From positions 1 to 25,788 of IMG/VR virus record IMGVR_UViG_3300006109_000033: a DNA stretch of 25,788 nucleotides, one strand, 5' to 3'. Shown here in pieces: positions 9,246 to 23,978 of the stretch (within the stretch, counting starts at the first letter, position 1; the number at the start of each line of letters is the position of its first letter). The notes below the pieces were generated by a model. The model did not search any database. It saw only the letters and a list, made by a program, of their open reading frames with translations, and was not told the DNA's origin. The translations under genes were made by a program, and so were the position numbers. The stretch is from a virus.

Positions 9246-9614
9246 CTAAGGTGCAAGGTTATCGAGGTTTCCATCAATATCATCCTCTGAGGTTTCAGGA
9301 GCAATACCCCATTCACCAGCAGTGCCTTGCGTTACGTTGTTTGGTGAATTTACGACGTTAGGATCCGTCGTAATAGCGTCATTATACTGTGCAACGTCAG
9401 CATCTGGGCGCGGAAACCGAATTGTGATTTTTTCAGGCTGACGTGCAGGTAGGCGATAAGGATCAAACTGGTCAGAACAACCATTTTGACACACTCTTAA
9501 AGCAGGAATATTGCCGTCAGGAATAATATCTGAATACGCACGCTTCATTTTGCAGCGATCGCATATTGCAATACTGAGCGTATTATTACCTAACGTATCA
9601 AGCCATTTAGGCAT
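9246..9614 (-). CDS. Small zinc-ribbon protein in the tail region
   Basis: 122 residues. Cys18-x2-Cys21 and Cys42-x3-Cys46 (ICDRCKMK and VCQNGCSD) form a probable four-Cys zinc ribbon. A short basic segment follows (PYRLPARQPEKITIRFPRP, about 52-70), then a Pro/Asn/acidic tail that looks disordered. Small proteins of this make-up are common near connector and fibre genes of phages; their role is unknown to me. The first eight bases overlap the end of the homing endonuclease gene, so the endonuclease insertion sits flush against this start. Confidence 0.65.
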   Translation of the reverse strand: MPKWLDTLGNNTLSIAICDRCKMKRAYSDIIPDGNIPALRVCQNGCSDQFDPYRLPARQPEKITIRFPRPDADVAQYNDAITTDPNVVNSPNNVTQGTAGEWGIAPETSEDDIDGNLDNLAP

Positions 9615-10200
9615 TTGAATCTTTCTTTTTAGCCCAAACCTGCCTTAACTTTTCTTTTTGCTCTTCTGACATTCGCCTACCTTTATGCGCTTCTGATATT
9701 TTACGTTTTGTTTCCGCGCTAAGTGTTTTACCTAAGTTTACTTCTCTCATCTTTTGAATTTGTTCAAAAGATTTAGGTTTTCCTGACAGTGCTAATTTTA
9801 TTTTAGCTTTATGTTCTTCAGTTTTAAGAACACCTTTACCAGCTAGGCTCATTTTTAAACGAGTTTCATCTGAAAAAGAAGTTTTTCTTCTGTTAACCCA
9901 TGCTTTTTTCATTTTATTACTAATCGCTTCATCTATAGCGACCATTGGCCATGCTGAACGATTGTAACAAGTTTCTTTTTCTTTAAGTAGTTGAATGATA
10001 ATCTGGCGTTCTAACTTAGCGCAATCATTCAAAAAACCTTTAGCGATTATTTGGCGAGTAAAGTCCTGAGGTTTTTCTTTGTATTCTTTAAGCATAGGTT
10101 CAGACGAGCAAATATACCCATCATTTTCAAAACCTTTATGAACCCCTACATATACTTTAGAGGTTTTATGGTCTGACCAAGAATATACAAAAGAATCCAT
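9607..10200 (-). CDS. GIY-YIG-type homing endonuclease with NUMOD3 repeats
   Basis: 197 residues. The N-terminal 80 residues look like a diverged GIY-YIG nuclease: FVYSWSDHKTSKVYVGVHKG at 4-23, then ENDGYICSS, and LERQIIIQLLKEKETCYN, with E64 the possible metal ligand. From 108 on there are four or five NUMOD3-like DNA-binding units (SDETRLKMSLAGKG, KTEEHKAKIKLALSGK, SAETKRKISEAHKGR, then SEEQKEKLRQVW). This architecture is typical of free-standing homing endonucleases of phages. It lies between two virion genes, beginning two bases after one and overlapping the next by eight bases. Sampled lines look more AT-rich than the flanking genes, consistent with later arrival. Not a virion protein. 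Confidence 0.85.
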   Translation of the reverse strand: MDSFVYSWSDHKTSKVYVGVHKGFENDGYICSSEPMLKEYKEKPQDFTRQIIAKGFLNDCAKLERQIIIQLLKEKETCYNRSAWPMVAIDEAISNKMKKAWVNRRKTSFSDETRLKMSLAGKGVLKTEEHKAKIKLALSGKPKSFEQIQKMREVNLGKTLSAETKRKISEAHKGRRMSEEQKEKLRQVWAKKKDSNA

Positions 10201-11261: not shown

Positions 11262-11630
11262 TTACCACCCCGCAATCTTCTTGACTTTTCCGCCAGTCTT
11301 TTTAGCAAGTATTTTATTCGCCTTAGCATCAATTTTAGCTTCACTTGATTTAGACAATTTTCTAGCTTTAACTTCTTGACTTGCTCTAGCTTTTGCATTA
11401 CCCGCATGAGCGCGATCAGGCATTGGATATTTACGCTCTCCTGGTAAACCAAATTCAGATTTAGGCAATGATTTACGAGTTTTTGTAGTTAATACTCCGC
11501 CCGTCTTTTTCGCTGCACGTTTCTCTGAGTAAGCAATTGCCACTGCTTGTTTCTGCGGTTTACCCGCTTTAATTTCAGTAGCAACATTCTTACCAAATGC
11601 AACTTTAGATTTTGATTTGATTAATGGCAT
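11262..11630 (-). CDS. Small Lys/Ala-rich protein with Gly-Gly motif, unknown function
   Basis: 122 residues, highly basic. It starts [20 protein letters not shown], followed by [20 protein letters not shown], a signature I recall from many phage and plasmid small proteins. The middle has [20 protein letters not shown] (60-79), an LPxERKYPxPDxxHAxNA motif seen in other small proteins. The end is [13 protein letters not shown], related to the basic Gly-Gly motif shared by three other proteins here. It could bind nucleic acid or the capsid interior; neither is shown. The start lies three bases after the upstream stop, with only a weak ribosome site. Confidence 0.7.
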
Positions 11631-11632
11631 GA

Positions 11633-12382
11633 TTATGGAGTTACGTTAGCAGCTACATCAGATTGAATTAAGTAACCTTCTACACCGAGGTTGATTGCAG
11701 CAGTACTTGCGCTAGTTACAAATAAAAACTGAAGGTCAGTCTTACCTGAGAACTTACGAGGCATAACCCTATCAACATTGTAAGCAGTTACAAACGGAGC
11801 ATTCTGACTAACGATATTTACGCCGTTAAAAGTGCTCAAATTTTGGTAAGTGATATAGTTAGCATTATTACCGTTAAATGACGAATTGGCGCTTACACGC
11901 TCTAAATAAAAGTCAAATCCGTTAGGTACGGTATAAATAGACATCAAGCTACGACCGAATCCTACGTTAATTTGAGCGTAAGTGGTTCCGCTATTCTTTG
12001 CAGTAACGATACCAGTCGCATTACCAGAAGTAGTAATTAACGCATTAATACGTAAATACAAACCTGTTGTAGTAGAAGTTCCAGACGCATTCAATGTCAC
12101 TATTTCAGACAATGAATTGTAATTTGCATCAAGACCTTGAATTAGAATCTTAACACCTGCATCCGTAGCGCCAGCGGCACTAGCTATGGTCATTGCCGCA
12201 GCAGAGCTAGAAAAAGTATATGCGGTAGCATTTTCCCAAAGAGGAATCTTTGTAGTGGTAACGGATGATTGATATCCGTAAATGTTTACAGTGCTGTGAC
12301 CATAAATCTGACCACGAGCAACTTGTACGTTAAACGGCTCATACGCACCTTTAACGGTTGCTGACGAAACTGTTGCAGTCAT
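11633..12382 (-). CDS. Beta-rich virion structural protein
   Basis: 249 residues. The N-terminal [73 protein letters not shown] and [15 protein letters not shown] make a pattern I associate with structural proteins of marine and freshwater phages. I know no established family name. Low charge, Thr/Ser/Asn-rich, no signal peptide or membrane span. It is placed between the His-rich protein and the Lys-rich protein. A GGAG site eight bases before ATG supports this start, and a strong stem-loop precedes it (12425-12408). Confidence 0.7.
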
Positions 12383-12407: not shown

Positions 12408-12425
12408 GCGGGGGCGAACCCCCGC
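12408..12425 (-). terminator. Strong GC stem-loop, possible terminator or mRNA boundary
   Basis: On the minus strand GCGGGGG, loop TTCG, CCCCCGC: seven perfect all-GC pairs around a UUCG tetraloop, seven bases beyond the stop of the His-rich gene. What follows, CTTCTTAAATTTT, is T-rich but broken, so termination may be partial. It could instead protect or separate mRNA segments. Confidence 0.55.
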
Positions 12426-12431
12426 GCAATC

Positions 12432-13394
12432 TTAGTAATTACACTTCTTAGCTTTACCACCAGTAGCCTTATGAGCCTTGCCACCGTGCGCCATGTGTTC
12501 CTTGTGGGAAACATGTCCACCGTGGGCGTGGTGTTTAGCGGCATGTTCATGCATGGATTTGTGTCCAGCATGTTCGTGTTTGCTTTTGGAGTGATGAGCA
12601 ACATGTCCACCGTGTTTATAACCCGCTGGACCTTCTTTGATAGAACCTGTGCCTGATTTCTTTGTAGGTATTTTGGATCCATCATTGATCTTAGAAATAT
12701 ACTCTTTAGCAGTAGCCAAGCCACCTTTAGCAAATTTCTTCAAAGCGCCACCGTGCCTGTAACCTTTGCCTTCAAGACCTTCAGTTTTGGTATTAAAAGA
12801 CTTAACCTGCTTCGCTTGATGCACTTTGTCTTTGATATCAATCTTTGGCTTCAAAGTTGTTTTGGTTTCAAAACGGTCAATAGCCGCGCCACCGTCTTTC
12901 ATTTTACCGCCTGAGCACATAGCTTTGTGGTGCTCATGCATCTTTTTATGATGCGCAGAACCACCTTCTTTGTGCTTAGCAGCGTGGTGCTTAGCCATAG
13001 CTTTGTGATGCTCATGTGAACCAACAGGATGACCAGATACATGATGAACCTTACCGCCTTTTTTGTATCCAGGACCTTCTACACCTTCGGTCATACGCTT
13101 AGAATCACGACGAGTAGCTTCAATCCCACCAGCTAGACCGCCCATTACGTTCGGACCAGCCTTTGGAGCGCGACCACCAGCTTTTAAACCATGATGAGCT
13201 TTAGAAGCCTTTTCATGTTCATGATGCTTGAGTTCTTTTTCAACGCGCTTGATTTCAGCTTCTTCGTTACGAATATGACCGCCTTTGGCATGCTTTTTAG
13301 CATGACCACCGCGCTTCATACCGTCGCCAACTTCATCAACTGAAGGCTCGGTTGTGAACATTTTTGGTTCACGGATAAATTTACTAGTTGCCAT
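12432..13394 (-). CDS. His/Lys/Gly-rich basic protein with repeated Gly-Gly motif
   Basis: 320 residues with about 41 histidines (13%), many lysines and glycines, and two cysteines (160, 318). The motif MKRGGHAKKHAKGG (26-39) recurs as YRHGGALKKFAKGG (212-225) and, shorter, at 110-118 and 259-268 after EG-rich spacers (GVEGPGYKKGG, GLEGKGYRHGG, KEGPAGYKHGG). His clusters such as HEHHKAMAKHHAAKH (128-142) and MHEHHKAM repeat each other. Residues 1-24 and about 171-205 are more ordinary. No known family is recognised. The composition suggests binding of DNA or divalent metals, possibly inside the head. Location among virion genes and a good AGGAGA site nine bases before ATG support expression. 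A same-strand overlapping frame is a shadow. Confidence 0.78.
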   Translation of the reverse strand: MATSKFIREPKMFTTEPSVDEVGDGMKRGGHAKKHAKGGHIRNEEAEIKRVEKELKHHEHEKASKAHHGLKAGGRAPKAGPNVMGGLAGGIEATRRDSKRMTEGVEGPGYKKGGKVHHVSGHPVGSHEHHKAMAKHHAAKHKEGGSAHHKKMHEHHKAMCSGGKMKDGGAAIDRFETKTTLKPKIDIKDKVHQAKQVKSFNTKTEGLEGKGYRHGGALKKFAKGGLATAKEYISKINDGSKIPTKKSGTGSIKEGPAGYKHGGHVAHHSKSKHEHAGHKSMHEHAAKHHAHGGHVSHKEHMAHGGKAHKATGGKAKKCNY

Positions 13395-13410: not shown

Positions 13411-14394
13411 TTAGGCTTGGTTTACACCGAGTGCACCGAGGCGAGTAGCGTTTGGACCAACCGCAATCGCAGGTACAGCCAATGAACATACTAAACGACG
13501 AACACCGTTAGTCGCGCTTGAAGGAGTGTAAGTTCCACGAACGTCACCAGTAGTCGAAGTAGCTGGGTTAGTCATATCAGCAACAGTTGCAGTTCCAGTA
13601 TCTTCAGCTAATGCGCTAGCCCAACCTGCGCTGATGATGTAACCAACGTCAGTAAAGCGAATAGGGCAACCGAGTACATCAGTAGTACCTACTGACACAG
13701 CAACGGTAGTACCAGCGCTAACGGAGATAGAAGAAATCTGATAGAATGCTTTTTTACCAGGAGTGGTTGTAGAAGCAACAGTGCCAGACGCGATAACTTC
13801 AGTCATAGCTTGACCATAGTAGTCATAACCAGACACGGTGAAGTTTGCACTAGCTGGGCTACCTGAACCAGTAGTTACGCTTACGGCACGTGGGCAATCC
13901 AATTGGATTACAGTTGTACCGTCAGTACGTACTACAGATTGAGTGCTTGTACCAGCTGCTAAAGTAGCAGAACCAGCGGCAGCATAAATAACAGCTGCAG
14001 AAATGTTTGCAACTTGTTTAGCTTCAGGAATAACGTCCCAGATATAAATACGACCGAGAGGACCAACGCCGAGGGACATTGGAGCTGGATCGCCAAGCAG
14101 GTAGTTACCAGAAGCAGTTACAGTAATAGAACCAGTAGCAGATGAAGAAGCACTCAAATTGTAAGTGCCAGTTGTACCTGAACCAGTCGCGAAAGAGGTA
14201 ATATAAGAACCAGAAGTAATACCAGTACCAGTAACATATTGACCAACGGTCAATGGGTCACCAGATTGCAACGCGGTTACAGTCAACACTGTACCAGTTA
14301 CAGAACCAGTAACTACAGAAGCGGTTGCATTTTTTGCAGTGCCCATAAAGGTGGGCGCGGAACCTAGAAATAGGTCATCACTAAATTGTGGCAT
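13411..14394 (-). CDS. Virion structural protein with inserted VGQ module
   Basis: 327 residues, Ala/Thr/Ser/Gly/Val-rich. The first 22 residues ([20 protein letters not shown]) lead into a module at about 24-95 ([38 protein letters not shown]), the type also seen in the left-edge gene. The body continues [38 protein letters not shown], then beta-rich [44 protein letters not shown]. It lies just after the major capsid gene, across a terminator. I have no family name; a head decoration or head-completion protein is plausible. AAGGAG eight bases before ATG supports the start. Confidence 0.7.
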
Positions 14395-14431: not shown

Positions 14432-14464
14432 AAGAAAAAGGGGCTAGGCTTTTGACCCAGCCCC
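14432..14464 (-). terminator. Intrinsic terminator after the major capsid gene
   Basis: On the minus strand GGGGCTGGG, loop TCAAAAG, CCTAGCCCC, then TTTTTCTT. The stem has eight pairs with one mismatch and is immediately followed by the T run, a textbook rho-independent terminator ten bases past the capsid stop. It closes a two-gene unit that starts at the promoter near 16127. Confidence 0.85.
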
Positions 14465-14473
14465 TGTATTACA

Positions 14474-15388
14474 TTAGACTCCAGGTGTGCCGTACATAGC
14501 ACGTGGGTCTGTCCAGCTTGGCCAATAACGCTCGGTTGCCTTGTAACGCATGGAGTCGGTTTCGAAATCGCCTTCCATGGTTTTCTCAAGAGCACGACGC
14601 ATCATCAACTTCATACCTTCTGGGGCATCAGTTTGAACCCACCAGTTAGTCGCAGAAGTCAAACGGCTAATTACTGAAGCACCTTCTGGCAACAATCCAA
14701 TTGATTTGATTGGGTTGATGTCATTGTTTGCTGTACCAGTACGTAGCACTGACTTCAACAACACTTCGGCTTGGAACACGTTGCCAGGAGCCACAACCAA
14801 TTTCAATGGTTGTAGGCGGATCTTCTTACCGTTGTTGTCAACGGCTTGACGAACCTGAATCAACATTTGCTCAAGTGAAGTCTGGGACAAGTTAGCAGCA
14901 GTACCTAGCAAGTTGCTAAATGTGCCGTTAACGATTGGGTGAGCAGAAGAACTCAATGCAACGCCGTCACCACCAGTGTATGAACTATTGAACGCGCGGT
15001 TCAAAATGTTCGCACAGAGGAGTTCCTTAGTTTCAACGAGTGACTGGGCTAAGTGCTTAGCATATACTTGACCAATACGGATGTGGTCTCCGTCTTCAAC
15101 TAAAACCTTAGTCAAAGCGAATGCCAAACCAAATACTTGGTAAACATAGCGTTGCAAGAATAACACACCACCTTGTTGATAGGTTACTGGGCTGCCATCA
15201 GGTAACTGAGGAGCTGCACCAAAACCGTACAATACTGGTTCTTCGTGGTAGTTACGTGGAATGCCTGCTTGTTCACGGAAAACTGTGGACCATTCATCGG
15301 CACGTTGATCATAAACTCCGTCAAATGCTTCGTTGAGGATTGGCTCAACTATTGAACGGAAGTCCGTACTGCGCATCGGGGCTGCCAT
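14474..15388 (-). CDS. Major capsid protein (HK97-fold candidate)
   Basis: 304 residues. Order: MRSTDFRSIVEPILNEAFDG at the N-terminus, an E-loop-like region (YQQGGVLFLQRYVYQVFGLA), a long helix with VYAKHLAQSLVETKELLCAN, ILNRAF, then P-domain-like strands (KLVVAPGNVFQAEVLL, INPIKSIGLLPEG, NWWVQTDAPEGMKLMMRRAL) and a C-terminus with FETDSMRYKATERYWPSW. This is the usual pattern of a small phage major capsid protein without long N-terminal prohead arm. Neighbours (probable scaffold, co-chaperonin, decoration) agree. A very strong ribosome site, AAAGGAGG at 15404-15397 eight bases before ATG, and the promoter/terminator bounding are what a highly expressed capsid gene should have. Confidence 0.87.
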   Translation of the reverse strand: MAAPMRSTDFRSIVEPILNEAFDGVYDQRADEWSTVFREQAGIPRNYHEEPVLYGFGAAPQLPDGSPVTYQQGGVLFLQRYVYQVFGLAFALTKVLVEDGDHIRIGQVYAKHLAQSLVETKELLCANILNRAFNSSYTGGDGVALSSSAHPIVNGTFSNLLGTAANLSQTSLEQMLIQVRQAVDNNGKKIRLQPLKLVVAPGNVFQAEVLLKSVLRTGTANNDINPIKSIGLLPEGASVISRLTSATNWWVQTDAPEGMKLMMRRALEKTMEGDFETDSMRYKATERYWPSWTDPRAMYGTPGV

Positions 15389-16726: not shown

Positions 16727-17683
16727 TTAACCTCTATTCTTTTGTTGACGGTCATAATCAGCAAAACGCTTGATCATTTTTTGGCGAGCCTCAGGATTAT
16801 CCCAAGCACCTGCCTCTTTCATTGCTGCAACACGCTCTGGACTAATCCTGAATTCATTGGATTTTGTAGTCGCAGTAGACTCCCTGCCTGAACTAGTCAT
16901 TACTGAACGTGGACGTGCAGTTTGCTTTGCAGCTTGACTTTGTTTAGGAACGTAACGAGCCATACGGTCACTTAATTCATCCCAGTAATCTTCAGTTGAA
17001 GGGTCATATCCTTCATCTGTCAATTTTTTGTCAATGATTTGAGCCATTTGGGATTCTTCGTTATTACCGTGTGGGTCGTACCATGGATTATCTTCCATCC
17101 AATCAGCTGCCATTTTTTGCACCATAGGGTCAGGTACTTGAATGTTCTGCTGCTGGGGTTGAGTCATCTGACGAGTAGCATTTGCCTTTACGTTTTCTAG
17201 GGATTCTAGTTTGCGCTTGGCTTCATACCACAGTTCTTGAGCACGTGTTACGCCTTGACCGTCATTTTGACCGACTGCCTCGGTAAGTTTCATTTTTGCG
17301 TACTCTACTTGAACTCCTGCGTCATCAATCGCTTTATCAATCCGCGCTAATTCTGCTCCTGAAGTCTTCTTTTCAACAGCCGCAAGGCGATTGGCGAGGG
17401 CTTCATTCTGCTTTTTTAGTGCATTAATCAGAGAGCTGGATTCTTTTGCTTTTTCCCTGTGAAGTTGCTTCTTTAGACGACGTTCTTCCCGACGGGCTTC
17501 ACGAATTTTCTCTCGTTCTTCAGCATCGGCAGAATTATCGCCATCATTAGCGTCATCATTTTGATGATCATCCGCTTTTACGTCTTGCGGATTGTCTTCT
17601 CCTTCAGGTAGCAATACCGCTGCGCCACCGTCTTGTAATTCTTCTACCGCTAATTGCGCTTCCATCTTATCAGTTGGATTCAT
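16727..17683 (-). CDS. Probable scaffolding protein
   Basis: 318 residues. The first 52 residues are very acidic (DHQNDDANDGDNSADAEERE at 39-58). A strongly charged coiled-coil follows, about 53-165 (REKIREARREERRLKKQLHR, then INALKKQNEALANRLAAVEK). The C-terminal part has MAADWMEDNPWYDP, GYDPSTEDYWDELSDRMARY and a basic end (RISPERVAAMKEAGAWDN, then KMIKRFADYDRQQ). Acidic, coiled-coil proteins with a basic C-terminal capsid-binding end between portal and capsid genes are usually internal scaffolds that shape the prohead. No protease motif is visible. A clear AAAGGAA site precedes the ATG. Confidence 0.7.
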   Translation of the reverse strand: MNPTDKMEAQLAVEELQDGGAAVLLPEGEDNPQDVKADDHQNDDANDGDNSADAEEREKIREARREERRLKKQLHREKAKESSSLINALKKQNEALANRLAAVEKKTSGAELARIDKAIDDAGVQVEYAKMKLTEAVGQNDGQGVTRAQELWYEAKRKLESLENVKANATRQMTQPQQQNIQVPDPMVQKMAADWMEDNPWYDPHGNNEESQMAQIIDKKLTDEGYDPSTEDYWDELSDRMARYVPKQSQAAKQTARPRSVMTSSGRESTATTKSNEFRISPERVAAMKEAGAWDNPEARQKMIKRFADYDRQQKNRG

Positions 17684-17703: not shown

Positions 17704-18126
17704 TTAAATGAAGGCTTTGATAGCTCGGGGATCTCCCGTTATCTTGCCGATTAGTTCATGATCATTAAAGAACGTAAACAGTGCTTTACCCTTTAGACCA
17801 TTTTCATCCGTGTAGTCTACTTCCCATCTGTCCCCGCCCCACTTAATAACACGGACATAATCACCGACTTCGCACCATGCACCTTCTGGCCAGTCTTCAT
17901 TACTGTCGCGTTTTTTAAATGCGATTGGTCCCACGGCTAATACCTTGCCGACTTGGGTGTTCCACTTTTCAGTTTCTTTGGTTTCTTCAGGCAGGAGGAT
18001 TCCAGCACTGGACATTTTCTCTTTGACGGCGCGTAATTGAACTAATATACGTGCCCCTAGAGGTTTGATCATGGGATCAACTTGAGGGAATGCTTCATCT
18101 AACGTCTGCTCTACATCAAAAGTCAT
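17704..18126 (-). CDS. GroES-like co-chaperonin
   Basis: 140 residues against about 97 in bacterial GroES. The core starts near 21 with PLGARILVQL, followed by the mobile loop at 36-52 (KMSSAGILLPEETKETE). ILL at 43-45 matches the hydrophobic tripeptide that docks to GroEL. Then VGKVLAVGP (59-67), EVGDYVRV (86-93) and FNDHELIGKI near the end fit the GroES beta-barrel. Extra residues lie at the N-terminus (1-20) and around 71-83. Phages such as T4 (gp31) make their own co-chaperonin so that host GroEL can fold their capsid protein; its place just before scaffold and capsid genes suits that. AGGAGA lies before the ATG. Confidence 0.85.
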   Translation of the reverse strand: MTFDVEQTLDEAFPQVDPMIKPLGARILVQLRAVKEKMSSAGILLPEETKETEKWNTQVGKVLAVGPIAFKKRDSNEDWPEGAWCEVGDYVRVIKWGGDRWEVDYTDENGLKGKALFTFFNDHELIGKITGDPRAIKAFI

Positions 18127-18166: not shown

Positions 18167-18355
18167 CTACAAATCCTTTTCTGATTCTTGCATTAGTTGA
18201 TCGATCATAATCAAGACTTCACCAAGTCCCATATTCTGACCAACTAAACGATGATAGCTTTCTATATTGATTGCTCCACCATCAGCAAGAGAAAGGGCGA
18301 TTTCAAGTCGCCGATTCTTTATCAAGCCGATTAAGTCTCCGATATTAACGCCCAC
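18167..18355 (-). CDS. Small helical protein, unknown function (GTG start)
   Basis: 62 residues, MGVNIGDLIGLIKNRRLEIA, LSLADGGAINIESYHRLVGQ, then LGEVLIMIDQLMQESEKDL. Probably two or three helices, no cysteine or membrane segment. The start is GTG at 18355, since the next ATG would remove two thirds of the protein. It overlaps the end of the 74-residue gene by 11 bases. The AAAGGCGG that encodes KKGG there sits eight bases before the GTG and may serve as its ribosome site. No family recognised, but the pattern is of the small phage proteins found near portals. Confidence 0.6.
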   Translation of the reverse strand: MGVNIGDLIGLIKNRRLEIALSLADGGAINIESYHRLVGQNMGLGEVLIMIDQLMQESEKDL

Positions 18356-18569
18356 GTGCTGCGCCGCCTTTTTTCATTGTAGCGATGCGCGGCTTACCCG
18401 TCAACATGTTTGGTTTGAGCGGGCTACCTTTAGCTGGCAGGTTTGCCACTTTAGATTCAGCTACCGCGCCACCATTAGCGTACTTCTTTACTTTACCGCC
18501 TTTTTTCATTACGTTACCTTCGGTAACTCCCATTGCCATTTTCTTATGGGCGTTGATTGCTTCAGACAT
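18345..18569 (-). CDS. Small basic protein with Gly-Gly motif
   Basis: 74 residues, MSEAINAHKKMAMGVTEGNV, then MKKGGKVKKYANGG at 21-34, a Pro/Lys stretch (LPAKGSPLKPNMLTGKPR), and MKKGGAARGR at the end. The motif is the same as in the His-rich protein and in the C-terminal part of the 936-residue protein. Highly basic, no membrane segment. Starts eight bases inside the end of the portal gene, with AAGGAG six bases before the ATG. Function unknown; capsid or DNA association is inferred from charge and place. Confidence 0.7.
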   Translation of the reverse strand: MSEAINAHKKMAMGVTEGNVMKKGGKVKKYANGGAVAESKVANLPAKGSPLKPNMLTGKPRIATMKKGGAARGR

Positions 18570-21168
18570 TTGATTCTCCTTGAGGTTGTTGAGTTACTGC
18601 TTGCTGTTGGATTGCTGCTTGTTGAGCTTGTTGCTCTGCCTGCTGCATAGCTTGCAGGTGTTCTTGATTCGCTAATTGGGCTTCATGCGCACGTTCGGCT
18701 TCGGCTTGCTTAGCTTCGAATTGTTTTTCAATAGTCATTGTCGCTGCGTCGTTAGTTAGCTTAGCAGTTTCAATTTGCTGAGTGCTTACGATGCTAGCTT
18801 CCTTCTCTTGAGCGTCTTGATTCTGCTTTTGCGCTTTCAATTCTAAATCAGCTTTGTCGTAAGCAGCCTTGCGTTGAGTTTCCGCCATTGCTGCATCGCC
18901 CATAACCTTGACCTGCGCCATGACGTTCGGGTCGGTAGGCATTTGAGGTTGCTGTTGTAAGCCTTTGAGCATCTGAAGCATCTGTTGAATACCATTAGCT
19001 ACGTCCGAAAGCTGCTGTTTAGAGTCTGCATGAACGTGCTCAGTAGAAGCCGCGAGTAGTTTCTGCGCCTCAGCCATGATTGGTTGCACTTTGAGAACGT
19101 CAAAATGCTTACCGAGTGCCGCGCTAGTGTAACCATCGCACTGCTTGAGGTACCAGAGAGTTAAATGCTGCTTCAAATGTTCAAGACATGCAGGGATGAA
19201 CGTAGGTGCGACAATCGGGTTAGAACCAAAGATTGGGTCTTGAGCGTAATTCAAATGAGACAGGAAGTGAGCGATGTGATCCTGCGCGGGGAATGCGCCG
19301 ACAGGCTTACCGAGCGTCATAGATACGTTCTCCAACGCTGGGTTCATATCTTCTACTTCATGTGGATCTGGCAGTACGCCGTTGACGTCAGGAATCTTGA
19401 TCTGTTTGAGGATGCGCTTCTCAACTTCTAAGCGATTGTACAGGTCAGGATTAGACTGAGCACGAGCTGCGAGGGTTTGAATCTGCGCATAGCGTTGTGA
19501 CTCAGCAAAAATATGCGGGTCAGAAACAGGAATGATATCCGTGTTACGCTCAAAATCATCTTTAGTGACTCCGAGTTCTTGAGCCATGTCATTCTTGGAA
19601 TACTCATCCATGTACCAGCGGTTAAGACGAGCGAGTATCATCAAAACTTTTTTCTGTGATTCGTGCAGTCTAGCATGTACCGAGCTAAACACTACTGAAC
19701 CTTGCTCAATCAGGGCTTGGGCAGTACCGACAGGCATAGTATTACTTGCGTCAGCAATTTTTTCTTCACTCGTGGAGACTACACCTTTTGCAGCGGCATC
19801 TAACCAACCCAATAATTGGAACAAAACAGGACTAGGTTGATTGAAAGGCACAGGCATTGCAATCTTACGAATGTCATCTACTCCTGGAGCACCTTCAATC
19901 TCAGAAACCTGAGTAGGCTCTATGGTCGTTGATTGACCTGAGATTTTTGCTCCCTTGAGTTTGAGCATTGTGGGGGCGGTGTTAATGTGCGCGGAGTCGA
20001 GCAGAGCGCGTAATGCACCAGTAAGAGCAGCAGATAACCCACCAATAAGATGAGGTAAGCCAATAGCATAAGCACCACGCCAAGGTATGAATTTAAACTC
20101 AATAATCCAGTCCAGCTTACTGAGGGTATCATCACCATCCTCCCAATTTCGATAGAGTCCAACTACAGTACGCTCGTTCTCATCAATCATCATGATGTAC
20201 GGAGCACGTTCACCTTTAGAGAAGTCATCAGCTTCTAATTCTAACCATGTCGCAATATGGTAAACACGACGGATACCGTCAATGTTGTCAGCTTGAGACT
20301 TACGACCTTCAATCTTATTGTTTGCTTTTTCAGCTTTGCTTTCTTCTGGCTCTTGAGAGGCACGGAAGATGTCTGTGTCAATGTAAAGACCAGATGAAAC
20401 ACGTAACTCATATTCCTCTTGAGTTATGTCTTGCACCTCGGTTACGCGTTGGGCAGTGTAAAAGTTACCAGCGGCGAACGGAAGATAAATATTATCAATC
20501 GGGACGAACTCAGCGCGTGGGCGTTTCTGCTGCGCATCATGCCACATCTTGAGGTACTGACTACCCCCGAGTGGGAGTTGTGAGGTTAATTGTTCTTCCT
20601 CATCTCTAAACTCAGGAATCTGCTCAGTAAGTTGCCAATTCATATAATCACGCTTACGCTCTGCTTTAGAGACTTTTTGCTCGCTAGCTTCGCCAATAAT
20701 CTTTGTACGTACTGGTCCGTCAGGTGGGAATAATTCCTTAATCGCCCGAGCCGAGAAGTCAACACAGGACTCCGCCATGACTGGGTGAACGACCTTACTA
20801 GCACCTTGAAACTGAGCACCACCAGGAGCATCATGCCCTAAGCCTGTTCTACGCAAGCCTTCTTCATACTGTTTGTCTCTGTCCTCGCGAGCTTCTTTAT
20901 CTTTCTCGATTAAGTCAAGATACTTTAATCCTAAGCTCGCAGTGTCCCATGAGTCAAGAGTGTCTGCTAGGTTCTCATAGAAGTCTGGGGACTCATCTGG
21001 TCCTTTAGTAGTCAAGCGTACAATAGCTGAGCCGTCTTCCTGCTCTTCTACCTCGGACTCTTCTTCTGGAATGTCAAATATAGAATCCTCATCATCTTGA
21101 GAAGCAGGCTCACCGTTTAAAGGGGCGATGTGGCGATCGTATTCTTGTTCGATTGGCATTTCAGGCAT
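18562..21168 (-). CDS. Portal protein
   Basis: 868 residues, larger than the 725 of the P22 portal. The acidic N-terminus (to about 60) is followed by DTASLGLKYLDLIEKDKEAR, GGAQFQGASKVVHPVMAESC and RAIKELFPPDGPVRTKI, a wing/stem region (LDWIIEFKFIPWRGAYAIGL, PHLIGGLSAALTGALRALLD at 371-390), and NTMPVGTAQALIEQGSVVFS (477-496), all fitting P22-type portals. Residues 525-700 are helical. The end from about 720 is a Gln/Ala/Glu-rich coiled coil ending QQAQQAAIQQQAVTQQPQ, like the barrel extension of podovirus portals. The portal forms the dodecameric DNA gate and packaging-motor dock. The start overlaps the upstream gene in TAATG. Confidence 0.85.
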   Translation of the reverse strand: MPEMPIEQEYDRHIAPLNGEPASQDDEDSIFDIPEEESEVEEQEDGSAIVRLTTKGPDESPDFYENLADTLDSWDTASLGLKYLDLIEKDKEAREDRDKQYEEGLRRTGLGHDAPGGAQFQGASKVVHPVMAESCVDFSARAIKELFPPDGPVRTKIIGEASEQKVSKAERKRDYMNWQLTEQIPEFRDEEEQLTSQLPLGGSQYLKMWHDAQQKRPRAEFVPIDNIYLPFAAGNFYTAQRVTEVQDITQEEYELRVSSGLYIDTDIFRASQEPEESKAEKANNKIEGRKSQADNIDGIRRVYHIATWLELEADDFSKGERAPYIMMIDENERTVVGLYRNWEDGDDTLSKLDWIIEFKFIPWRGAYAIGLPHLIGGLSAALTGALRALLDSAHINTAPTMLKLKGAKISGQSTTIEPTQVSEIEGAPGVDDIRKIAMPVPFNQPSPVLFQLLGWLDAAAKGVVSTSEEKIADASNTMPVGTAQALIEQGSVVFSSVHARLHESQKKVLMILARLNRWYMDEYSKNDMAQELGVTKDDFERNTDIIPVSDPHIFAESQRYAQIQTLAARAQSNPDLYNRLEVEKRILKQIKIPDVNGVLPDPHEVEDMNPALENVSMTLGKPVGAFPAQDHIAHFLSHLNYAQDPIFGSNPIVAPTFIPACLEHLKQHLTLWYLKQCDGYTSAALGKHFDVLKVQPIMAEAQKLLAASTEHVHADSKQQLSDVANGIQQMLQMLKGLQQQPQMPTDPNVMAQVKVMGDAAMAETQRKAAYDKADLELKAQKQNQDAQEKEASIVSTQQIETAKLTNDAATMTIEKQFEAKQAEAERAHEAQLANQEHLQAMQQAEQQAQQAAIQQQAVTQQPQGESNV

Positions 21169-23978
21169 TATTTATTCCTAAGTATTGTGAGGCGCATTTC
21201 GTCTATTGACGGAATTTTAACTGATCCACCGTTTTTGTAAACTGGATTTTTTGCGCTAATTTCATTTTTGAGTAGCCCGTCACCTCCAAAGCCGCCCCCG
21301 CCGCCTCCTGCTCCACTGCCGACTCTAGCAGGGTTACTTCTGAAGGTTGCAGGGTTTTCAGTTTGAAAAGCATGCTGTCTTAATTGTTCACGATTCATAT
21401 CAACTTTGGGTTGACGCATTGGGTCTTGCTTATTTAAAAACTCTTGAACGCGAATTTCTTCATTTGTAGGAGCAACGTATTCAGGTTTAGGTTCTAATGA
21501 TTCATTATATCTGTCTTGATATGACATGTGATCTCCCCAATGTTCAGGCACAGGATTTAATCGTGCGTTGTGAAGATAATCAGCTTGATTTTTTGTGATG
21601 CGATTTTCATCTAAACCTTTTTGAATGTCTTCAGGATAAATTGGGTCAGGAGTTCCACCTTCAGCAAACTTTTGAATGCGTCCACCGTTCTTATGACCTT
21701 CTGGCGGTAGCCTACCTTGATCCCGCATGCGTTGTTGCAGTGTGCGTGGCTCATTAGCTTTACGCTCTGCCTCGTTAGCTCGGCTCTTCTCGAATAACTC
21801 ATTGCGCATTTGCTCAGGAGTTTTTGCGAATGGCTTTTCTGGGCGCGTCATGATGTGTTTGATTTCTTCATCAGAGGCAAACCGCTTTAACTCACCTGAA
21901 TTCAGAGCTTTAACAATTTTTGGGTCTAAATTCTCAGGACGTATTACGCCATTTTTAAGGTCAATGACGCCGATGTTGTCTAAGTCATTAGCGCTATAAA
22001 CTTTATCTGCTTCTTTATTGAGCCAGTCTTTGATGTAGGTGCGATATTTATCGGAGACTGCTTTGTTGCCTTTACCTTTAATCTGCTCGATGTTGAGCAT
22101 GGGGTTATTCTTGAAGTACTTCTCACCTTCTTGAATCTGTACGCCAGTGTAATGATGAAGCCAACCCATAGAGTCTTTTGGGTAACCTGCTTTGACTGTT
22201 TCGTCATGAGCCTTTTTATCAATCTGCGCTTTGACGTCATCAGGAATCAACGCAGGATTGTACGTCTGCCGACTCGGAGTCGCTTCTACAGTGGCATGTG
22301 CCCCGCCTTTCTCATCACGTAGTGAGAAGATGCGGGACTCACCCGATGCCACGGAGTCAGTATAACCTCCGACGCAGTGACCCATTTGTTCACCTTCATT
22401 TTTGAGAGCCTTGTCTAGCTTATTACGTGCTAAATTTGAGTTATATTTATATATAAGATTTTCTGGCGTTTTAGCGTATGGTGAGTGCATTATCTCAGTA
22501 CCATCTTGGGTTCCAATTCCAAGTAACCCATCTCCAGCGTCAATTACTTTTAATCCGTGGGGTAATTCTAAAGGAGCATCTGGCATCTTGAGTTCATGAA
22601 TGTTATATCCGTTACCACTTTCATGTACAATTGGGAAGTCTTTGAGACTATCCTTTGCAGCCTTGGACATTTGGTCTGCTCGCCACTTATTGATCTTTGC
22701 TACATGCTTGACGGCATGCGGCACGGTCATCTTGTCAAGTGTTTCGGGCTTCAAGCGTAAATGCTCAGGTAGGTCAGAGTTGTGACTGATTGAATTCTTA
22801 AGTTCATCGGTCAAGTGCTCAAACCCGAGGCGACGGGAATTAGTATTCAATTCATGCACGATGGCATCAGGATTACGAGCTGCAAGCTCTCCGAGGTCAC
22901 TGCTATAATTATTTTTACCAGGAGTTATGAATTGCGCGGGAGTATTGTTGATTGCTTGATCAGCTCGGTTCTCCCAGTCTTTTGCCTCGGGCGATTTTGC
23001 GAATCCTGACTCAGGCATACCCGCCTTTTGTCTTTGCTCTTTGAGCCAGAAGATCGGTTCAAAATCTTGAGTGCCAATGTCAGGTATGTGGCTGATGCCT
23101 TGTTCATGTAGTGCCAGAACTGGATCAGTCGGTGTCCCCATCTCATTACGAGTGTAGTTCTTAAGTTTTGTGTCTACCCACTTGTTGATTGCAATCTCAT
23201 TCATGACTTCTTTGACCTGCTCAGGTGAGTAACCGACTTTTTCAAGTTCAGCAATGTGCTCGGCTACCTTCGCTGGATTGGTGTTGTCACGAATGAAATC
23301 AAACTTACTACTTCCGGCGTTTTGAATAGGATATTTTAGGGCGTCAAGACGATTGACTGAGTTCTGCGCCCAGTTACCGCCTTTGTTCTTGACGGCAGAC
23401 ATGATCTGCGGATTTACGAGGTCAGCGGGAACTCCTGGGATCAAACTTTGACCCGCCATAATACGCTCACCAGCAGCATTGCCGAGCATGCGACCAGCGG
23501 GCGCGAGGGCAGGCACGCCCATCGCCGCGATTGAAACAGGCTCGCCAGATTCATAACCTCGGTTATACGCCATACCCGCAGGAGTAAATAAGGAGTTCGG
23601 GTTCTGAGCGGGCAAGCCAGTAGCGGAAGCTGCAAAACCTGTTTGCTCCGGTAATGGGTTCTTACCCGTTAGCATCTCTGTGAATGCGGCGGGATTTGTC
23701 AACAGGCGTTGCGCTTGAGCGGGAAGGTTAGCGAGGTAATTAGCAGCCTCATCAAGAGTCGGTAATGAATCCAAAACCGAAGGGCTGGGCGCGGGAGTAG
23801 GGTAACTGGTTTGATACTGAGGAGAAGCTACTTGAGTAGCGTATTGCATCTCATCAACGCTAGGGGCTTGAGTACCCAATCCGCTTTGACCACCTAGCAA
23901 GCCAGCCTGCTGCATGGCTGCGAGCTGGGCGCCAGTTATGCCTGTGACGTTTACTGATGAGGACGGATCATTATCCAT
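21168..23978 (-). CDS. Large multidomain protein with a PcfJ-like domain
   Basis: 936 residues. 1-130 is Pro/Gln/Ala-rich and probably disordered. About 190-500 has helical segments without recognised family. 530-653 carries PcfJ-family marks: GHCVGGYTDSVASGESRIFS (533-552), LRDE, HATVEA (561-566), then IEQIKGKGNKAVSDKYRTYI (630-649). 762-775 is the basic Gly-Gly motif (HKNGGRIQKFAEGG), 888-900 a Gly-rich linker, and YKNGGSVKIP lies near the end. PcfJ is known from Enterococcus pheromone plasmids and is widespread in mobile elements; its biochemical role is unclear. Between terminase and portal it may be packaged with DNA and delivered, or act in packaging; inference. A TATAAT-like core sits in the gap before it. 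Confidence 0.75.
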   Translation of the reverse strand: MDNDPSSSVNVTGITGAQLAAMQQAGLLGGQSGLGTQAPSVDEMQYATQVASPQYQTSYPTPAPSPSVLDSLPTLDEAANYLANLPAQAQRLLTNPAAFTEMLTGKNPLPEQTGFAASATGLPAQNPNSLFTPAGMAYNRGYESGEPVSIAAMGVPALAPAGRMLGNAAGERIMAGQSLIPGVPADLVNPQIMSAVKNKGGNWAQNSVNRLDALKYPIQNAGSSKFDFIRDNTNPAKVAEHIAELEKVGYSPEQVKEVMNEIAINKWVDTKLKNYTRNEMGTPTDPVLALHEQGISHIPDIGTQDFEPIFWLKEQRQKAGMPESGFAKSPEAKDWENRADQAINNTPAQFITPGKNNYSSDLGELAARNPDAIVHELNTNSRRLGFEHLTDELKNSISHNSDLPEHLRLKPETLDKMTVPHAVKHVAKINKWRADQMSKAAKDSLKDFPIVHESGNGYNIHELKMPDAPLELPHGLKVIDAGDGLLGIGTQDGTEIMHSPYAKTPENLIYKYNSNLARNKLDKALKNEGEQMGHCVGGYTDSVASGESRIFSLRDEKGGAHATVEATPSRQTYNPALIPDDVKAQIDKKAHDETVKAGYPKDSMGWLHHYTGVQIQEGEKYFKNNPMLNIEQIKGKGNKAVSDKYRTYIKDWLNKEADKVYSANDLDNIGVIDLKNGVIRPENLDPKIVKALNSGELKRFASDEEIKHIMTRPEKPFAKTPEQMRNELFEKSRANEAERKANEPRTLQQRMRDQGRLPPEGHKNGGRIQKFAEGGTPDPIYPEDIQKGLDENRITKNQADYLHNARLNPVPEHWGDHMSYQDRYNESLEPKPEYVAPTNEEIRVQEFLNKQDPMRQPKVDMNREQLRQHAFQTENPATFRSNPARVGSGAGGGGGGFGGDGLLKNEISAKNPVYKNGGSVKIPSIDEMRLTILRNK

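What the first reader, a model, noticed from the sequence alone, without database searches (positions are those of the whole stretch)
12432..13394. A 320-residue His-rich, repetitive basic protein among virion genes
About 13% His with Lys and Gly, repeated HEHHKAM-type clusters and three EGxxY(K/R)xGG units. It resembles no structural phage family I know. Possible roles: a DNA-condensing internal head protein, a metal (Zn, Ni, Fe) store, or a pH-switched protein, since His near neutrality could change charge during packaging or ejection. Good ribosome site and placement 1 kb after the capsid gene argue for high expression.
Basis: partly seen in the sequence, partly recalled or inferred. Interest (0 to 1): 0.68.

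Follow-up and report, generated by a model that had tools for sequence, protein, structure and literature searches.

The report
His-rich, Gly-Gly-repeat phage virion-region protein
The window holds a real, conserved, disordered and strongly positive phage protein whose lasting feature is a repeated Gly-Gly peptide that also tags other virion-region proteins and likely injected effectors, while the histidine richness is a later add-on, so the locus hints at an undescribed sorting code inside phage particles.

Summary
12432-13394 encodes a 320-aa protein (12.8% His, 17% Lys, 15% Gly). It is under purifying selection (dN/dS 0.11-0.20), has 77 related loci in viral contigs, and matches no Pfam, PHROG, NCBIfam or PDB family. 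AlphaFold gives no ordered fold.

Histidine is not the family's defining feature: homologs in the same slot have 1-3% His, and the His-rich stretches are mostly extra segments that were gained or lost several times. What is constant is a cationic, disordered chain with repeats of the type [FY]-K-x-GG-x-V-K-K-[FY]-A-x-GG.

The same short motif occurs in otherwise unrelated virion-region proteins of these phages: a 74-aa protein after the portal, small head-tail proteins, a tape-measure-like protein in the ejection-gene cluster, and the C-terminal tail of the polyvalent (PcfJ, and in relatives ADP-ribosyltransferase) protein before the portal. Of the late-gene classes compared, only the capsid gene and this gene regularly end in a GC-rich hairpin.

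Best reading: an abundant virion protein, probably internal, that binds a shared partner or DNA through multivalent Gly-Gly motifs and works like the T4 internal-protein/targeting-sequence system without being homologous to it. Partner and location are inferred.

The parts
12432..13394 (-). gene for the 320-aa His-rich Gly-Gly-repeat protein
13329..13379 (-). residues 6-22, conserved N-terminal block (F)xREPKxxTTEPSxDEV
   Evidence: invariant columns in alignment; His-poor group has KMxTTEPSVxLKLKKGG
13278..13319 (-). residues 26-39, Gly-Gly unit MKRGGHAKKHAKGG
13179..13265 (-). residues 44-72, conserved charged helix ending SKAHHGLK (low-confidence helix 44-66 in the model)
13053..13079 (-). 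residues 106-114, EGPGYKKGG unit
12915..13046 (-). residues 117-160, His-rich module (low-confidence helices 126-159); absent from His-poor homologs
12720..12773 (-). residues 208-225, EGKGYRHGGALKKFAKGG unit
12606..12635 (-). residues 254-263, EGPAGYKHGG unit
12465..12605 (-). residues 264-310, C-terminal His-rich stretch, followed by conserved C-terminal ...KCNY
12408..12425 (-). GC-rich UUCG hairpin just after the stop codon, terminator-like
14439..14465 (-). terminator-like hairpin after the major capsid gene
14474..15388 (-). major capsid protein
   Evidence: Pfam PF25209, PHROGs 4523/133
18345..18569 (-). 74-aa post-portal protein with MKKGGKVKKYANGG at residues 21-34
21168..23978 (-). 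936-aa polyvalent-type protein (PcfJ domain) between terminase and portal, with Gly-Gly motifs near its C-terminus
21654..21695 (-). Gly-Gly motif HKNGGRIQKFAEGG (residues 762-775) of the 936-aa protein
21171..21239 (-). C-terminal tag YKNGGSVKIPSIDEMRLTILRNK (residues 914-936), shared by otherwise divergent pre-portal proteins of relatives
11262..11630 (-). 122-aa MPLIKSKS-type protein (PHROGs 2423 and 16160); orthologs carry Gly-Gly motifs

Best explanation
The gene makes an abundant, intrinsically disordered, strongly cationic virion protein, probably located inside the particle. Its functional units are repeated Gly-Gly linear motifs. The same motif sits on other virion-region proteins of these phages, including the tail of the likely injected polyvalent protein and a tape-measure-like protein of the ejection cluster. 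I infer that all of them bind one common partner (head lining, core, portal/ejection apparatus or packaged DNA) and that this protein is the multivalent, high-copy member that fills or organises the interior, comparable in working to T4 internal proteins sharing a capsid-targeting sequence with Alt. The His-rich segments are optional modules that probably tune binding, for example through protonation. Shown: the family, its conservation, predicted disorder, constant positive charge, the motif shared across non-homologous proteins, and the hairpin. Inferred: location in the virion, common partner, high copy number, role of His.
For: Purifying selection, dN/dS 0.11-0.20. No ordered fold: mean pLDDT 43.9, no residue at 70 or above. 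Net charge constant: mean +33 in His-rich, +40 in His-poor members. In six near-complete relatives there were 41 strict motif hits against about 0.9 expected from shuffles: 26 in this family, 14 in other virion-region proteins, 1 in a DNA polymerase. Unrelated carriers prefer a GG-to-GG spacing of 9 residues: 143 seen, 16 expected. The pre-portal proteins differ in effector domains (PcfJ, ART-PolyVal, GP88), yet most share a C-terminal GG...SIDEMR tag. The 588-aa carrier matches tape-measure PHROGs and lies in the ejection-gene cluster. MPSKS-type carriers match 'virion structural protein' PHROGs. A hairpin follows this gene in 44 of 47 loci and the capsid gene in 26 of 30, against 0 of 27 and 0 of 33 for two neighbouring genes, 6% of other genes and 1.4% of shuffles.
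Against: No virion proteomics or structure is known to me for any member; no cultured phage in the collection carries the family. Relatives with 37-77% identical capsid proteins (Caulobacter GB2A, Roseobacter CRP-901, Alcaligenes QDWS535, Planktothrix Pag-Yong1) lack the family and the strict motif in the stretches examined, so it is not essential to this head type. The motif is short and was defined from these same phages. The partner is unknown. The hairpin may be an mRNA end or stabiliser and does not prove abundance.
Confidence: 0.45

Rival explanations
1. It is simply a DNA-condensing, protamine-like internal protein: Lys/His-rich disordered chains neutralise packaged DNA, and the Gly-Gly motifs are DNA-contacting or flexible spacers with no protein partner.
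For: Net +33 to +40, disordered, pI 10; probable high expression; other motif carriers are also often Lys-rich.
Against: The motif is specific in spacing and flanking residues and occurs as one or two copies at the ends of large polyvalent proteins, which does not look like bulk neutralisation. Many tailed phages package DNA without such a protein.
Confidence: 0.22
2. It is a neck or capsid-surface decoration or linker protein: the disordered chain bridges the beta-rich virion proteins encoded on either side.
For: It lies between two phage-structural-looking genes (13411-14394 and 11633-12382) and before the tail adaptor; a conserved C-terminal Cys in 51 of 69 members could cross-link.
Against: The neighbour genes differ between relatives while this gene stays; the motif shared with the likely injected polyvalent protein fits an internal place better.
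Confidence: 0.14
3. It is an assembly factor (scaffold-like or chaperone-like) that recruits motif-bearing proteins to the growing head and is absent from the mature virion.
For: Encoded among head-assembly genes including a GroES-like co-chaperonin; multivalent motifs fit a transient hub.
Against: A separate charged protein (16727-17683) is better placed for the scaffold role (position before the capsid gene; inference only).
Confidence: 0.13
4. It is a metal store or pH switch: clustered His bind Zn/Ni/Fe or change charge near neutrality to time DNA release.
For: His is 81% conserved per His column within the His-rich group, about as well as Gly; His-rich segments also arose in an unrelated Gly-Gly-motif family, the MPSS(S/T)KQH proteins; parsimony needs about four changes of His state, three of them forced by well-supported branches.
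Against: Homologs with 1-3% His hold the same genomic slot, so this cannot be the family's core function; no known metal-binding family matched.
Confidence: 0.06

Closest known systems
T4 internal proteins IPI-III and Alt with their capsid-targeting sequence (PMC9026906, PMC7411985)
   Same: Several unrelated head proteins, one an ADP-ribosyltransferase, share a short peptide that sends them into the head; the internal proteins are small and present in hundreds of copies.
   Different: The T4 signal is an N-terminal propeptide of about 10 residues cut off by gp21; here the motif is internal or C-terminal, repeated, Gly-Gly based, with no sign of removal. Homology was not shown.
Polyvalent proteins of phages (Iyer et al. 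2017, PMC5512222)
   Same: The 936-aa pre-portal protein has PcfJ, and close relatives ART-PolyVal, domains; the paper predicts packaging and injection for phage members.
   Different: The His-rich protein has no catalytic domain; only the Gly-Gly motif links it to them. A search of the paper's text found no shared packaging motif.
Viral DNA-condensing cationic proteins (ascovirus P64, PMC6163548; adenovirus core proteins)
   Same: Strongly positive proteins of a DNA virus particle.
   Different: No sequence relation was found; no DNA binding has been tested here.
Podovirus ejection proteins (T7 gp14-16, P22 gp7/16/20; PMC8954989)
   Same: The phage has a P22-like layout with an ejection cluster, one of whose proteins carries the motif.
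   Different: The His-rich protein is encoded near the capsid gene, not in that cluster, and lacks transglycosylase or helical-tube features.

Membership tests
T4-type capsid-targeted internal proteins | short targeting peptide shared by otherwise unrelated head proteins | tested here: inconclusive
   Gly-Gly motif is shared by non-homologous virion-region proteins; that it targets anything was not tested
T4-type capsid-targeted internal proteins | N-terminal propeptide with a prohead-protease site | tested here: not met
   motifs are internal or C-terminal in most carriers
T4-type capsid-targeted internal proteins | present in the mature head and ejected with DNA | not testable with these tools
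   needs virion proteomics
Polyvalent proteins | several catalytic or conflict domains in one chain | tested here: not met
   no domain in the 320-aa protein; such domains are in the neighbouring 936-aa protein and relatives
Viral DNA-condensing cationic proteins | strong net positive charge, low order | tested here: met
   +33, pI 10, pLDDT 43.9
Viral DNA-condensing cationic proteins | binds and condenses genome DNA | not testable with these tools
   needs biochemistry
His-rich metal-binding proteins | His content conserved as the functional core | tested here: not met
   His 1-3% in about a third of distinct homologs with unchanged Lys, Gly and motif
Known Pfam, PHROG or NCBIfam family | profile match | tested here: not met
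   none for the window protein or for 16 His-poor and related members against PHROGs

The most novel reading that the evidence does not exclude
The Gly-Gly motif is a general virion-cargo code of many aquatic phages: a disordered, multivalent Gly-Gly-repeat protein made at high level forms the interior hub that captures motif-tagged proteins (swappable injected effectors, tape-measure/ejection proteins, small head-tail proteins), and His-rich modules make the hub's charge respond to pH.
Probability: 0.18. Interest if true: 0.8.

Novelty: new variant of a known kind. Interest (0 to 1): 0.52.

Why it matters
Outside T4-like phages it is mostly unknown how phages choose which non-structural proteins to load into the particle and inject. 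A short peptide shared by a likely injected polyvalent protein, by ejection-cluster proteins and by a repeat protein with many Gly-Gly pairs gives a concrete, testable candidate for such a sorting signal. It would also help annotate a large set of hypothetical proteins in uncultivated aquatic phages.

Tried and rejected
Frame artefact: rejected (plus strand has stops; dN/dS, relatives). Histidine as the family's hallmark: rejected. Known family: none in Pfam, PHROGs or NCBIfam; PDB gave only a chance photosystem hit at E = 0.89. Known RNA element: none in Rfam. Fold of the protein: none predicted. Fold of the motif-bearing C-terminal region of the 588-aa protein: low confidence, mean pLDDT 41.6, not used. 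Solved structures for the capsid, its two beta-rich neighbours and the tail adaptor: no sequence match. Cultured carriers of the family: none. Link of His content to habitat: could not be tested; the sample identifiers appear in no held paper. Host: three related contigs sit in Betaproteobacteria MAGs, which is binning evidence only.

Full report
OBSERVATION. The frame lies on the minus strand, 13394 down to 12432; the plus strand is closed by stops. The 320-aa product is 12.8% His, 17.2% Lys and 15% Gly, with pI 10 and net +33. It has 77 related loci in viral contigs, from 100% to about 36% identity, and dN/dS of 0.11-0.20 against ten relatives; the neighbouring capsid gene is lower, at 0-0.08. 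It is therefore a real, constrained gene. It matches nothing in Pfam, PHROGs, NCBIfam or the PDB beyond chance.

WHAT IS CONSERVED. Homologs split into a His-rich group (8-19% His) and a His-poor group (about 1-3%) in the same genomic slot: after the capsid gene, usually with one beta-rich gene between, and upstream of the tail adaptor. Lys (15-16%), Gly (15-16%) and net charge (mean +33 and +40) do not differ much. On a capsid-protein tree the His state needs four changes, three of them forced by well-supported branches. Over half of the His columns of the window protein are gaps in the two His-poor members of the closer alignment, so the His-rich parts are largely modules. Within the His-rich group, however, His columns are 81% conserved. 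A second, unrelated family in other phages (MPSS(S/T)KQH type) also carries His-rich segments between Gly-Gly motifs. Thus His is an optional but selected addition, not the core.

THE MOTIF. The core is [FYLM]-K-x-GG-x-V-K-K-[FYH]-A-x-GG. In six near-complete relatives a strict motif occurred 41 times against about 0.9 expected from shuffles: 26 in this family, 14 in other virion-region proteins and 1 in a DNA polymerase. The regular expression was written after seeing the motif in these phages, so the count is not independent of its discovery. The preference for a 9-residue GG-to-GG spacing in unrelated carriers, 143 against 16, was not built into their selection.

THE CARRIERS. (a) A 74-126-aa protein directly after the portal. 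(b) [13 protein letters not shown] proteins near the tail adaptor; the MPSKS N-terminus matches PHROGs named virion structural protein and a small phiKZ-like phage protein annotated as structural. (c) A 588-aa protein matching tape-measure PHROGs, in a gene cluster that in a relative holds a stabilisation protein and a transglycosylase. (d) The large protein between terminase and portal: the window copy has a PcfJ domain, relatives also ART-PolyVal or GP88 domains. Most of these differ in length and domain content but end in K-x-GG-x-[VI]-x-S-[IL]-D-E-M-R or a close variant; one relative (L128) has the Gly-Gly motif but not this ending. Iyer et al. (PMC5512222) predict that phage polyvalent proteins are packaged and injected.

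EXPRESSION SIGNALS. An AGGAG lies 10 nt before the start and is kept in relatives. A GC-rich hairpin follows the stop in 44 of 47 loci, and the remaining three have shorter or larger-looped versions by eye. The capsid gene has one in 26 of 30; the gene between them 0 of 27, the tail adaptor 0 of 33, other genes 97 of 1599, shuffles 1.4%. Three of six stem pairs show compensatory changes. I infer a transcript end or stabiliser marking a strongly expressed unit.

STRUCTURE. AlphaFold with 17 relatives gives mean pLDDT 43.9 and only low-confidence helices at 44-66 and 126-159, which suggests disorder.

INTERPRETATION. The simplest account that covers disorder, constant charge, repeated motif, likely high expression and motif sharing with probable injected and ejection-cluster proteins is a multivalent, probably internal virion protein. 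In working it resembles the T4 system, where internal proteins and the ADP-ribosyltransferase Alt share a capsid-targeting sequence (PMC9026906, PMC7411985), but the signal differs in sequence, place and apparent lack of processing. Pure DNA condensation, a surface or neck linker, and a transient assembly factor are not excluded. Relatives with 37-77% identical capsid proteins lack the family and the strict motif in the stretches examined, so it is dispensable for this head type.

LIMITS. All carriers of the family found here are uncultivated sequences (IMG/VR contigs, one metagenome-assembled record, MAG contigs). Host is unknown; three related contigs lie in Betaproteobacteria MAGs. No statement about habitat is made.

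Noticed in passing
window 21168-23978 (-); L206, L208, L093, L212, L213: The pre-portal polyvalent protein keeps a common core and C-terminal tag in close relatives while an ADP-ribosyltransferase-like segment is present or absent just before the Gly-Gly motif (L206 and L208 have it, the window does not).
   Followed up: partly
window 12408-12425 and 14439-14465 (-): Of the late-gene classes compared, only the capsid gene and the Gly-Gly protein gene regularly end in GC-rich hairpins; the capsid one looks like a full terminator.
   Followed up: yes
family members, C-terminus (e.g. KCNY, GGxC): 51 of 69 family rows (including partial and near-duplicate copies) have a Cys within the last 6 residues although they average only 1.4 Cys in all; enriched also in other motif carriers (46 of 134 against 13% background).
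   Followed up: partly
window 11262-11630 (-); L050 9986-10549: MPLIKSKS-type protein carries short conserved blocks (PHROGs 2423 and 16160); the 187-aa ortholog matches 451 phage records, including Pseudomonas phages, cyanophages and pelagiphages.
   Followed up: no
L118, L201, L202, L203: The N-terminal 29 residues MPSKSKAQHNLMEAVAHN... recur in short proteins of phiKZ-like phages and in a small protein between portal and capsid genes of Stenotrophomonas phage BUCT555.
   Followed up: no
L094, L097, L103, L173: A second, unrelated Gly-Gly-motif family in other phages also has His-rich segments.
   Followed up: partly
window 9607-10200 (-): A 197-aa protein resembling a GIY-YIG/NUMOD homing endonuclease (by eye) sits between tail genes.
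   Followed up: no
window 17704-18126 (-): A GroES-like co-chaperonin (PHROG 3188) is encoded between portal and capsid genes; relatives annotated in GenBank keep one in the same place.
   Followed up: no
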